From: Bradyrhizobium sp. CCBAU 53351
GTDB taxonomy: Bacteria; Pseudomonadota; Alphaproteobacteria; Rhizobiales; Xanthobacteraceae
NCBI RefSeq assembly: GCF_015291745.1
Contig: NZ_CP030059.1
Coordinates: forward strand, 124,001-188,000
Direction of reading: 5' to 3'
DNA: 64,000 nt
The notes under the pieces: model-generated
What the model saw: the letters and a program-made list of their open reading frames with translations, nothing else
Told to the model about the DNA's origin: nothing
Database searches by the model: none
Program-made: the position numbers and the translations under genes
In this document: piece by piece, positions 29,277-40,355 of the stretch
Numbering within the stretch: the first letter of the stretch is position 1
Layout: every line of letters starts with the position of its first letter

Positions 29277-30359
29277 ATGACCGATCTTGCCCAGCTCCAA
29301 GCCCAGATCATCGCCGACATCGCCGCCGCCGCCGACGAGGGCGCGCTCGAAGCCGTGCGCGTCGCAGCCCTCGGCAAGAAGGGTTCGATCTCCGCGCTGC
29401 TCGCAACGCTCGGCAAGATGTCGCCGGACGAGCGCAAGTCGCAAGGGGCCGCGATCAACCAGGCCAAGGACGAAGTCACCCAGGCGCTCGCGGCAAGGCG
29501 CGACGTCCTGAAATCGGCGGCGCTCGATGCGCGGCTGGCGTCCGAGACCGTCGACGTCACGCTGCCGCTGCGCGAGGCTCAGGCCGAAGCCGGCCGCATC
29601 CATCCGCTGAGCCAGGTCTGGGACGAGCTGACCACGATCTTCGCCGACATGGGATTCTCGGTGGCCGAAGGTCCTGACATCGAGACCGACGATTACAACT
29701 TCACCAAGCTGAATTTCCCGGAAGGCCATCCCGCGCGCGAGATGCACGACACGTTCTTCTTCCATCCGAAGGAGGACGGCTCGCGCATGCTGCTGCGGAC
29801 CCACACCTCGCCGGTGCAGGTGCGCACCATGCTGAGCCAGAAGCCGCCGATCCGCGTGATCTGCCCGGGCCGTACCTACCGCATCGATTCGGACGCGACC
29901 CACACGCCGCAATTCCACCAGGTCGAAGGCCTCGTCATCGACAAGACCTCGCATCTCGGCCACCTCAAATGGATCCTGCACGAATTCTGCAAGGCGTTCT
30001 TCGAGGTCGACCACATCAACATGCGCTTCCGGCCCTCGTTCTTCCCGTTCACCGAGCCGTCGCTGGAAGTCGACATCCAGTGCCGCCGCGACAAGGGCGA
30101 GATCCGCTTCGGCGAGGGCGAGGACTGGCTCGAGATCCTCGGCTGCGGCATGGTGCATCCGAACGTGCTGCGCGCCTGCGGCATCGATCCCGACGAGTAC
30201 CAGGGCTTCGCCTGGGGCATGGGCATCGACCGCATCGCCATGCTGAAATACGGCATCGCCGATTTGCGCCAGCTGTTCGACAGCGACGTCCGCTGGCTGA
30301 GCCATTACGGGTTCAAGCCGCTGGAGGTGCCGACGCTGGCTGGGGGGTTGAGCACGTGA
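29277..30359 (+). CDS. pheS: Phenylalanyl-tRNA synthetase alpha subunit
   Basis: The 360-residue catalytic subunit of the alpha2-beta2 enzyme that charges tRNA-Phe. The N-terminal coiled-coil (about 1-85) binds tRNA. Class II motif 2 is visible as [12 protein letters not shown]...[10 protein letters not shown] and motif 3 as [22 protein letters not shown]. The phenylalanine-binding region [19 protein letters not shown] is present. The normal partner pheT lies 548 bp downstream instead of adjacent, because a DUF559 element separates the two genes. Confidence 0.97.
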
Positions 30360-30391
30360 TGGCTGTGATTGGCCATACGAAAGCTCTCTCC

Positions 30392-30850
30392 GTTCCCTCC
30401 CCCCTTGTGGGGGAGGGTCAGGGAGGGGGGTAGCCGCGGATGCCGCACGCAGTTGTGAGCGAGCGTCAGCGCAGCAAGGCGAAGGATCTTCGCCGAGCGA
30501 TGACGCGCGCCGAAACACTGCTGTGGCGTTACTTGAAAGCTAACCGCATGGATGGCGTTGGGATCCGTCGCCAGACGCCGATCGGAAACTACATCGCTGA
30601 CTTCGTGTGCTTCTCCTCAAAGCTCATCATCGAACTCGATGGAGAATCCCACAATTTCGAGGAACGTCAGAAGAAGGACGAGCGTCGTGACGCGTTCTTC
30701 GCAGCTGAGGGCTTTCAGGTCCTGCGCTTCAACAACGATCAGGTGATGACGAACCTTGAGGGAGTTGTTGAGGCAATTCGCCAGGCAGCTTCCGCCGGAG
30801 CCCGCGGCTCACCCCCCTCCCTGACCCTCCCCCACAAGGGGGGAGGGAAC
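30392..30850. mobile_element. DUF559 gene enclosed by long perfect inverted repeats
   Basis: Left (30392-30431) and right (30811-30850) 40-bp repeats are exact inverse complements. Allowing one inserted base they extend to 30392-30439 and 30802-30850. Each is itself a hairpin (CCCTCCCCC-CTTGT-GGGGGAGGG). The DUF559 start codon is the first base after the left repeat, and its C-terminus is encoded by the right repeat. The unit sits between pheS and pheT. No target-site duplication is evident. It resembles a REPIN-type or non-autonomous-transposon architecture with an endonuclease-like gene inside. Confidence 0.75.
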
Positions 30851-30910
30851 ACTGGCACCGACCAAGATCAATTCGTAAACACCGACAAGAGCCGAGGCAC
30901 ACAGCCATGA
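30440..30910 (+). CDS. DUF559 domain protein (Vsr/endonuclease-like fold)
   Basis: A 156-residue protein. The DUF559 core spans about residues 10-115: [53 protein letters not shown] and [25 protein letters not shown]. The D-x(n)-ExD-type acidic residues (IADFVCF...IIELDG) match the PD-(D/E)xK/Vsr-like nuclease fold, so single-strand or site-specific nicking is plausible but unproven. The last about 35 residues ([14 protein letters not shown]...) are translated from the right inverted repeat and look non-functional. The stop overlaps the pheT start (ATGA), so it may be translated as part of the pheS-pheT message. Confidence 0.88.
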
Positions 30911-33315
30911 AATTCACCCTCTCCTGGCTGAAGGATCATCTCGAGACTGACGAGCCGCTCGACAGGCTTGCCGAGAAGCTCACCATGATCGGACTCGAGG
31001 TCGAGAACATCGAGGACAAGGCGAAGGCGCTCAAGCCCTTCACCATTGCGAAGGTGATTTCCGCCGAGCAGCATCCGAATGCGGATCGTTTACGCGTCTG
31101 CATGGTCGACACCGGCGACGGTGGCGCGCCGGTGCAGGTCGTGTGCGGCGCGCCGAATGCGCGTGCGGGTCTGGTCAGCGTGTTCTCTCCGCCCGGCACC
31201 TACATCCCCGGCAAGGACATCACGCTGGGCGTCGGCACCATCAGAGGCGTCGAGAGCCGCGGCATGCTGTGCTCGGCGGCCGAGCTGCAGATCTCCAACG
31301 ATCATGACGGCATCATGGAATTGCCGGCGGATGCGCCGATCGGCGCAGGTTACGCCGAATGGGCGGCGCTCGGCGATCCCGTGGTCGAGATCAATTTGAC
31401 GCCGAACCGGCAGGACTGCACCGGCGTGCACGGCATCGCGCGCGACCTCGCCGCCGCCGACATGGGCAAGTTCAAGGACCCGACCATCAAGCCGATCAAG
31501 GGCGAATTCCCCTGTCCTGTGAAAGTCACGGTTGAGGACACCTCGCTCTGTCCGGGCTTCGCGCTTCGCCTCGTGCGCGGAGTCAAGAACGGGCCGTCGC
31601 CGGAATGGCTGCAGAAGCGGCTGACGGCGATCGGCCTGCGTCCGATCAACGCGCTGGTCGACATCACCAACTTCATGACCTACGACCGCGCGCGTCCGCT
31701 GCACGTGTTCGACGCCAAGAAGGTGAAGGGCAATCTCGTCGTACGCCGCGCGCGCGAGGGCGAGAGCCTGCTGGCGCTCGACGGCCGCACCTACAATCTC
31801 GATCCCGCGATTTGCGTGATCGCGGACGAGCATGGCGTCGAATCGCTGGCCGGCATCATGGGCGGCGAGGCCTCGGGCTGCGACGAGACCACCACCGACG
31901 TGCTGATCGAATCGGCGCTGTGGAACGAGATCAACATCGCGCAGACCGGCCGCAAGCTCGGCATCAATTCCGATGCGCGCTACCGTTTCGAGCGCGGCGT
32001 CGATCCGGCCTTCATGGTGCCCGGCCTGGAGCTTGCGACGAAACTCGTGACGGAGATGTGCGGCGGCGCGCCGTCCGAGACCGTCGTGGTCGGCAAATCC
32101 TTCGGCGACGACCGCGTGATCGATTTCCCGGTCACCGAGGTGAAGCGTCTCTCCGGCATCGACGTGCCGCAAGCAGAGATGAAGCGCATCCTGACCCATC
32201 TCGGCTTCATGATGGCCGGCCCGGGGCCGGTCGTGAAGGTCGCTGTGCCGTCCTGGCGCTCCGACGTGCACGGCAAGGCCGACATCGTCGAGGAGATTGT
32301 CCGCATCTTCGGCGTCGACAAGGTCCCGATGACGCCGTTCGAGCGCGGCGAGGACGCGCGCAAGCCGGTGCTGACGCCGCTCCAGCTGCGCACGCGCCGG
32401 GCCAAGCGCGCGCTCGCGGGCCGCGGCATGGTGGAGGCGGTGACCTGGTCCTTCATCACCAAGAGCGCGGCACAGTTGTTCGGCGGCGGCCAGCGCGAGC
32501 TCGAGGTCGCCAACCCGATCGCGTCGGATCTCTCCGACATGCGCCCGACGCTGCTTGCGGGCCTGATCGCGGCGGCACAGGCGAACGCCAACCGCGGCGT
32601 GAACGATGTCGCGCTGTTCGAGGTCGGCCAGGTGTTCAAGGGCGATCGCCCGCAGGACCAGTTCATGGCCGCGAGCGGCGTCCGCCACGGCATTGCTTCG
32701 TCCGAAGGCCTGGGACGGCACTGGACCGGCTCGGCGCAGGCCGATGTGTTCGACGCCAAGGCTGATGCGCTGGCGGTGCTGGCAGCAAGCGGCGCGCCGA
32801 TGCAGGCGCTGCAGATCGTGTCCGGTGGACCGTCCTGGCTGCATCCGGGCCGCTCCGGCACCATCCAGATCGGGCCGCAGAACGTGCTCGGATATTTCGG
32901 CGAGGTGCATCCGCGCGCGCTCGAAGCGCTCGGCGCCGACGGCCCGCTTGTCGTGTTCGAGGTGATCCTGGACCGTATCCCGGAAGCGAAGAAGAAGCCG
33001 ACCCGCGCCAAGCCGCTGATCGAACTCTCGGCGTTCCAGCCGGTATCGCGCGACTTCGCCTTCATCGTCGATCGCACCGTGAAGACGGGCGACATCGTGC
33101 GCGCCGCGCAGGGTGTCGACAAGAAGCTCATCACCGGCGTCAACGTCTTCGACGTCTATGAGGGCAAGGGCATCGACGAGGCCAAGAAATCGATCGCGAT
33201 CGCGGTGACGCTCCAGCCGCGCGAGAAGACCCTGACCGATCAGGAGATCGACGCCGTCGCGGCGAAGATCGTCGCCGAGGTCACGAAGAAGACCGGCGGC
33301 ACGCTCCGCGGATGA
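30907..33315 (+). CDS. pheT: Phenylalanyl-tRNA synthetase beta subunit
   Basis: An 802-residue beta subunit. It has an N-terminal tRNA-binding OB domain ([21 protein letters not shown]), B3/B4 editing domain ([29 protein letters not shown]), B5 domain, a class II-like core and a C-terminal ferredoxin-fold anticodon-binding domain ([26 protein letters not shown]). The editing domain hydrolyses mischarged Tyr-tRNA-Phe. The first residues ([15 protein letters not shown]) fit the family start. The start codon overlaps the DUF559 stop by 4 bp, and its own stop overlaps the next gene. Confidence 0.97.
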
Positions 33316-40203: not shown

Positions 40204-40355
40204 CCCTCTCCCCCTTGTGGGAGAGGGTGGCTTGCCGCGTAGCGGCGAGGCGGGTGAGAGGTATCTATCTGCGATTCCAATTCTCATTTGGACTCGCGGA
40301 TAGATACCCCTCATCCGGCGCTTCGCGCCACCTTCTCCCACAAGGGGGAGAAGGG
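40204..40355. repeat. Gene-less paired-hairpin element, 152 bp
   Basis: Left arm 40204-40231 (CCCTCTCCC-CCTTGT-GGGAGAGGG-TGGC) and right arm 40327-40355 (GCCACC-TTCTCCC-ACAAG-GGGGAGAAGGG) are near-perfect inverse copies, each itself a hairpin. Inner GTATCTAT / ATAGATAC arms also pair. The hairpins share the CTTGT loop and C/G-tract stems of the repeats around the DUF559 gene, so this looks like a short, gene-less member of the same family (a REPIN-like unit). Confidence 0.75.

What the first reader, a model, noticed from the sequence alone, without database searches (positions are those of the whole stretch)
30392..30910. DUF559 endonuclease-like gene packaged in perfect 40-bp inverted hairpin repeats, inserted between pheS and pheT
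Seen: 30392-30431 and 30811-30850 are exact inverse complements (40 of 40), extending to about 48 of 49 positions with one inserted base. Each repeat is an internal hairpin with a CTTGT loop. The gene starts right after the left repeat and its C-terminal codons are the right repeat. It splits the usually adjacent pheS-pheT pair while keeping translational coupling (ATGA) with pheT. Known: DUF559 has a Vsr/PD-(D/E)xK-like fold, and REP/REPIN systems use a dedicated enzyme (RAYT) encoded between hairpins. Inference: DUF559 plus these hairpins may be an analogous, little-described enzyme-palindrome dispersal system using an endonuclease rather than a transposase.
Basis: partly seen in the sequence, partly recalled or inferred. 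Interest (0 to 1): 0.82.

Follow-up and report, generated by a model that had tools for sequence, protein, structure and literature searches.

The report
Nuclease gene framed by triplex repeats
A small gene for a DNA-cutting type of enzyme sits between two mirror-image, triplex-forming DNA repeats, and related genes in many distant bacteria stand beside matching repeats, which suggests that this enzyme handles, and perhaps spreads, a common bacterial repeat whose carrier was unknown.

Summary
A DUF559 gene (30440-30910) lies between exact 40-bp inverted repeats and splits pheS-pheT. Each repeat is a hairpin plus a mirrored purine tail, the intrastrand-triplex motif of Holder et al. 2015; none of my literature searches showed a DUF559 link to it.

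The pairing is general: a triplex motif lies within 300 bp of DUF559 in 77 of 83 Bradyrhizobium loci (23 of 375 control ORFs) and 58 of 75 loci from many phyla (6 of 74 controls). It is specific: within 14 genomes, left flanks match their own right flanks (median 47) better than a paralog's (23); in 142 Bradyrhizobium genomes copies of motif A rise with gene A and motif B with gene B, while crossed pairs do not. Motif A also forms gene-free, inward-facing pairs; the host genome has no RAYT-type transposase. Empty sites exist, and other cargo in the same pheS-pheT slot lacks the repeats (0 of 12 against 25 of 26).

Best reading: a REPIN/RAYT-like partnership built from an unrelated nuclease and unrelated repeats. 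The association is strong. Recognition, cutting and dispersal are inferred, and homing or a repair role stays open.

The parts
30392..30431 (+). Left triplex motif (type A): stem CCCTCCCCC / GGGGGAGGG, loop CTTGT, second loop TCA, mirrored purine tail GGGAGGGGGG facing the gene
   Evidence: exact copies flank type A genes in other genomes
30440..30910 (+). DUF559 (PF04480) gene, 156 aa, type A; family-invariant residues R43, D54, E65, D67, H71 present
30811..30850 (-). Right triplex motif, exact inverse of the left one, read as the gene's C-terminal codons
29277..30359 (+). pheS, upstream side of the slot
   Evidence: slot compared in 60 genomes
30907..33315 (+). pheT, downstream side of the slot, start overlaps the DUF559 stop (ATGA)
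40204..40355 (.). Gene-free inverted pair of a related repeat (CCCTCTCCCCCTTGTGGGAGAGGG ... GGGTGAG and its inverse), the REPIN-like arrangement in the same window

Best explanation
DUF559 genes and intrastrand-triplex repeats form a nuclease-repeat partnership that works like RAYT-REPIN, from unrelated parts. Shown here: the gene sits between two inverted motifs (hairpin plus mirrored purine tail); repeat type goes with gene type; gene-free pairs with the same ends and orientation lie elsewhere in the genomes, and motif copies are more numerous where the cognate gene is present; the gene is a distinct single copy of its type and comes and goes at its sites. Inferred: the PD-(D/E)XK-type enzyme recognises its own repeat when it folds out (hairpin or triplex, perhaps in single-stranded DNA at the fork), nicks or cuts there, and repair of the cut copies the repeat pair, in trans, into new intergenic places. 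The gene-bearing unit rarely multiplies within a genome and mostly passes between strains by recombination of its flanks.
For: Triplex motif within 300 bp of DUF559: 77/83 Bradyrhizobium, 26/29 other Pseudomonadota, 25/29 in six multi-copy genomes, 13/14 plasmid-collection records, 58/75 GTDB-wide, against 23/375 and 6/74 control ORFs. Own left-right match median 47 (n 50) against 23 across paralogs (n 154), 0 of 20,000 reassignments as good. Motif A count tracks gene A (median 9 against 1, p 6e-9), motif B gene B (15.5 against 4, p 3e-10); crosses p 0.13 and 0.26; tree-corrected p 0.001 and 0.003, crosses 0.07 and 0.16. Inward pairs 32, outward 4, tandem 0, at quantised spacings, the seven 418-bp ones being the gene units. 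Short pairs share ends, not flanks. No PF01797 in the host genome. Empty sites. Same slot, other cargo: no repeats.
Against: No cutting, movement or sharp target-site duplication shown. 9 of 56 gene-A genomes have no motif A copy beyond those of the gene itself, and 48 of 86 genomes without gene A still carry motif A. Own right flank is the strict best match in only 39 of 50 loci; L002, the host's second gene, is among the 11 that fail. 17 of 75 GTDB loci have no motif by my finder and 9 have neither motif nor inverted repeat. E. coli ycjD has motifs downstream only. No near-identical gene copies within a genome, at most 65% identity among the loci compared.
Confidence: 0.55

Rival explanations
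1. Homing: the enzyme cuts gene-free repeat pairs of its own type and the gene is copied in by recombination with the two repeats as homology arms; the repeats spread by some other means.
For: The gene lies exactly where the interior of a gene-free pair would be. One pheS-pheT slot (L084) holds a repeat pair without the gene.
Against: 11 of 57 pheS-pheT sites and the two closest relatives' sites at the L126 locus are bare, without any repeat pair. Repeat number rising with the cognate gene is not predicted. L084 may equally be a deletion product.
Confidence: 0.2
2. Guardian or repair role: the Vsr-like enzyme resolves the structures or mismatches that its neighbouring repeats cause; gene and repeats stay together because the repeats are harmful without it, or because they regulate the gene.
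For: YcjD profile finds Vsr (PMC1189080, passages). Caulobacter VsrA, a DUF559 protein, causes SOS in a methylase mutant (PMC12907096, passages). Triplex loci are unstable (PMC4666352). Would also fit more repeats where the gene is present.
Against: Does not explain why the gene is itself framed by the inverted pair in the same inward orientation as gene-free pairs, nor frequent gene loss at the slot with repeats left behind (7 of 8 relics).
Confidence: 0.17
3. No functional tie: the repeats are ordinary intergenic palindromes or terminators, and DUF559 is passive cargo in recombination hot spots such as pheS-pheT.
For: The pheS-pheT gap is a general cargo slot: ASCH gene in 10 of 57, two other genes.
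Against: Other cargo in the same slot lacks the repeats (0 of 12 against 25 of 26); control ORFs lack them; type-specific double dissociation; recurrence in Deinococcus and cyanobacterial records with other repeat sequences.
Confidence: 0.06

Closest known systems
REPIN / RAYT (REP-associated tyrosine transposase) systems
   Same: Enzyme gene beside dispersed palindromic repeats; inverted doublets; each enzyme in a genome distinct and single-copy with its own repeat type; enzyme not visibly self-mobile (PMC3116915, passages)
   Different: Enzyme is DUF559 (PD-(D/E)XK type), not Y1/HUH; no PF01797 in the host genome; repeats are hairpin plus mirrored purine tail; gene lies inside the pair
Intrastrand triplex motifs (TM, TMECO; Holder et al. 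2015, PMC4666352)
   Same: Same stem / loop / stem / short second loop / mirrored third strand; class II purine type; inverted pairs in E. coli
   Different: Described without any partner enzyme and as not associated with mobile elements; here matched to DUF559 types
DUF559 / YcjD / Vsr-like nucleases
   Same: The window protein is a clear member with the invariant residues of a 54-protein alignment; solved relative 3hrl
   Different: Discussed as PD-(D/E)XK or Vsr-like repair proteins; no repeat partner in the passages read
MITEs with their autonomous transposons
   Same: Short gene-free elements share ends and orientation with a gene-bearing unit
   Different: No transposase; gene units not multiplied within a genome; no clear target duplication

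Membership tests
REPIN/RAYT | Y1 / HUH tyrosine transposase (RAYT) gene | tested here: not met
   PF01797: 0 matches in the host genome while 5 of 14 control genomes ring; the gene is PF04480
REPIN/RAYT | Dispersed palindromes mostly as inverted doublets | tested here: met
   Motif A, 150 copies in ten genomes: neighbours under 600 bp are 32 inward, 4 outward, 0 tandem
REPIN/RAYT | Each enzyme distinct, single copy, with its own repeat type | tested here: met
   At most 65% identity between DUF559 loci compared within 14 genomes; left-right pairing per gene; not all copies of every genome were compared
Intrastrand triplex motif, class II | Hairpin of 6-15 bp with a mirrored purine third strand across a 1-6 nt loop | tested here: met
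   Window arm has a 9-bp stem, loop TCA and exact mirror. Some other types have a longer, structured second loop, outside Holder's limits
Intrastrand triplex motif, class II | Forms a triplex in solution | not testable with these tools
   Shown by Holder et al. for an E. coli motif (abstract), not for this sequence
DUF559 | PF04480 above its curated cut-off | tested here: met
   128.8 bits against 20.6
DUF559 | Nuclease activity | not testable with these tools
   Conserved acidic and basic residues only; structure prediction not available
Homing endonuclease | Gene-free allele keeps the intact recognition site (here the repeat pair) | tested here: inconclusive
   One candidate (L084) at pheS-pheT, but 11 bare sites there and two at the L126 locus
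Transposon with terminal inverted repeats | Sharp ends with target-site duplication | tested here: inconclusive
   Empty sites found, but flanks differ by several nt and no clear duplication is seen

The most novel reading that the evidence does not exclude
DUF559 nucleases are the missing enzyme partner of bacterial intrastrand-triplex repeats: a second, independently evolved, phylum-spanning repeat-dispersal system beside REPIN/RAYT, with E. coli K-12 ycjD and its TM repeats as a decayed member.
Probability: 0.5. Interest if true: 0.93.

Novelty: new variant of a known kind. Interest (0 to 1): 0.85.

Why it matters
[quoted passage not shown] A type-matched nuclease would give them one, give the large DUF559 family a function, and make both testable in E. 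coli K-12 and Bradyrhizobium. It would also show that an enzyme-plus-palindrome partnership arose with a different class of nuclease.

Tried and rejected
Chance palindromes: rejected by shuffles and control ORFs. RAYT as mover in this genome: no PF01797 (only the host genome was tested). Known RNA element: no Rfam match with E up to 1 in 30000-31200. Anti-phage system: two weak partial PADLOC matches. Phage-borne element: five distant phage records. Fixed in the genus: rejected. Fold comparison: not possible. Sharp element ends or a target duplication were looked for at pheS-pheT and at the L126 site and not found.

Literature: eight searches of open PubMed Central papers. Nothing in the listings points to a DUF559-repeat link. 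I read passages of PMC5082802, PMC3733652, PMC12907096, PMC1189080 and PMC3116915, and outline, passages and sections 15 and 18 of PMC4666352; a term search in PMC12306157 found none of five terms (101). Of the 14 papers holding 'DUF559' I opened one. Preprints, most subscription papers and Hoyne et al. 2000 (known only through Holder et al.) were not available, so absence from print is not established.

Full report
WHAT IS THERE. The window holds pheS, a 156-aa DUF559 gene and pheT in one direction. The gene (PF04480, E 9.9e-38) lies between arms 30392-30431 and 30811-30850, complementary at 40 of 40 bases and at 48 positions with one inserted base. Its stop overlaps the pheT start as ATGA. 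Residues invariant in an alignment of 54 proteins, among them R43, D54, E65, D67 and H71, are present. The only relative of known structure by sequence (E up to 1) is 3hrl, 'Endonuclease-Like Protein'.

THE REPEAT. The arm reads pyrimidine stem, loop CTTGT, purine stem, TCA, then a purine tail that mirrors the purine stem. This is the class II intrastrand triplex motif of Holder et al. 2015 (PMC4666352; outline, passages, sections 15 and 18). They report 23 copies in E. coli MG1655, five inverted pairs, no association with mobile elements and no trend in neighbouring gene functions; 'endonuclease' and 'DUF' do not occur in the text. The plain hairpin is not unusually stable for its composition (z -1.31); the program does not model triplexes.

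GENERALITY. I scored 300 bp on each side of the DUF559 core for (a) an inverted repeat between left and right, score 40 or more, and (b) a triplex motif on either side. Bradyrhizobium: 66 and 77 of 83 (2 more loci dropped for short flanks). Other Pseudomonadota (29 loci): 13 and 26. Six multi-copy genomes (29 loci): 18 and 25. Records of the plasmid collection (14 that I picked of 42 with a match): 5 and 13. GTDB-wide (80 best loci; 75 scored, 4 short, 1 with a core already scored): 31 and 58; one of the 58, L235, is a poly-C run. Controls, other ORFs of the same loci: Bradyrhizobium 2 and 23 of 375; GTDB 0 and 6 of 74. The first version gave 67 of 83 against 2 of 361. Shuffled flanks reached 40 in 0 of 1,150. 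The samples are best-scoring or hand-picked matches, so the frequencies need not hold for the most divergent members. Nine of the 75 GTDB loci show neither motif nor inverted repeat of 30 or more. GTDB loci with a motif include Omnitrophota, Planctomycetes, Nitrospirae, Chloroflexi and Patescibacteria by record title.

OTHER LINEAGES. In Deinococcus plasmids the gene stands inside hpa or paa gene clusters between inverted G/C-rich motifs, and in cyanobacterial plasmids among A/T-containing or G/C-rich ones. E. coli K-12 ycjD (b1289, between fabI and sapF) is a DUF559 gene whose stop codon lies within a partly decayed motif; another TM-type motif follows further downstream and none is seen in the 70 bp upstream. 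The sapF-ycjD stretch of one strain is covered to at least 80% in 3361 of 5426 E. coli genomes.

COGNATE PAIRING. In 14 genomes with two or more fetched DUF559 loci (50 loci), the left flank scores median 47 with its own right flank (32 of 50 at 40 or more) and 23 with a paralog's (17 of 154); none of 20,000 within-genome reassignments was as good. High cross scores include close paralogs (94 at 58% identity in G215; 68 at 65% in G313). Against: the own right flank is the strict best in 39 of 50; the 11 exceptions include L002, the host's second gene (36 against 39), and L160, L147 and L174, which match a paralog clearly better.

REPEAT NUMBER FOLLOWS THE COGNATE GENE. In 142 Bradyrhizobium genomes I counted motif A and motif B, up to 3 mismatches (reversed-pattern controls zero in every listed genome), and genes of type A (59% identity or more) and type B (72% or more). 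Motif A: median 9 with gene A (56 genomes), 1 without (86, of which 38 zero), p 6e-9. Motif B: 15.5 with gene B (50), 4 without (92, of which 19 zero), p 3e-10. Genomes with the gene cannot be zero as a rule, since its own flanks count; after subtracting two copies p is 6e-5 and 1e-7, or 9e-5 for A with two removed per gene, when 9 of 56 have none left. Crossed pairs: p 0.13 and 0.26. With a pheS-pheT tree of 57 genomes p is 0.001 and 0.003, crosses 0.07 and 0.16. A one-locus tree is a weak correction, and 48 of 86 genomes without gene A do carry motif A.

GENE-FREE PAIRS. Of the 150 motif A copies listed for ten genomes, neighbours within 600 bp are inward-facing 32 times, outward 4 times, tandem never. 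Spacings are 62-68 (6), 107-130 (17), 172, 234 and exactly 418 bp (7); the seven 418-bp cases enclose type A genes (coordinates). Twenty short pairs were fetched; 19 were aligned, 13 and 6: ends and orientation are shared, flanking DNA is not. The host genome has no Y1/RAYT gene.

TURNOVER AND EMPTY SITES. In 60 Bradyrhizobium genomes (57 scored, three with contig ends or no pheS) the pheS-pheT gap holds DUF559 type B in 18, nothing in 11 (the genes overlap by 4), an ASCH-domain gene in 10, DUF559 type A in 8, relics in 8 (7 with a repeat, L282 without), other genes in 2. On the tree of the flanking genes these states need 32 changes, against 34.3 for shuffled labels (as low in 33 of 200), so they are close to unordered; exchange of the slot between strains is the simplest cause. 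In this slot 25 of 26 DUF559 inserts carry strong inverted repeats (L310 does not) and 0 of 12 other inserts do. At a second site the 571-bp unit of G102 (74-bp inverted repeats) is absent from G081 and G073, where 4 and 9 nt lie between the matching flanks; 29 loci were compared there, many with other unrelated sequence in the gap.

MECHANISM AND LIMITS. Cognate matching, the double dissociation and gene-free pairs with the same ends make a trans-acting nuclease that disperses its own repeats the best reading (0.55). Recognition, cutting and copying are inferred. Homing into repeat pairs (0.2) and a Vsr-like guardian role (0.17) remain open. VsrA of Caulobacter indicates that a DUF559 protein can provoke DNA damage in vivo (PMC12907096, passages).

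KNOWN AND NEW. It works like REPIN/RAYT (PMC3116915, passages) but is not a member: the defining transposase domain was tested and is absent from the host genome. The repeat class and the protein family are each known; their link did not appear in the searches. I file it as a new variant of a known kind because the partnership resembles one already described, although neither part is homologous to it.

Noticed in passing
pheS-pheT gap: L286, L287, L289, L290, L292, L293, L298, L303, L305, L309; also L059, L067: The same slot holds an ASCH-domain gene in 10 of 57 genomes and two unrelated genes without Pfam match: a cargo hot spot between two essential genes.
   Followed up: partly
L003 / G000:C1:5012427-5012720: The host's third PF04480 match lies at the end of a 403-aa open frame and has no flanking repeats: a different subtype.
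   Followed up: no
L002 / G000:C1:3001-3318; similar positions in G005, G036, G106, G135, G143: A second, distinct DUF559 gene between repeats of another type lies about 3 kb into the first contig in several Bradyrhizobium genomes, a second shared slot.
   Followed up: partly
L190, L197 (Synechocystis plasmids): DUF559 genes with triplex repeats appear to interrupt DNA-methyltransferase genes.
   Followed up: no
The PF04480 genome search does not ring in its E. coli control, although MG1655 carries ycjD; genome counts of DUF559 from that search are lower bounds.
   Followed up: partly
L317-L339 (gap at the L126 site in relatives): Several relatives carry another dispersed palindromic sequence (GTCATGCCCGG...CCGGGCAT type) in the same intergenic gap.
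   Followed up: no
L186, L200, L281 (ycjD-fabI): Strains of E. coli differ in the motif array downstream of ycjD, a possible record of repeat change in a laboratory species.
   Followed up: no
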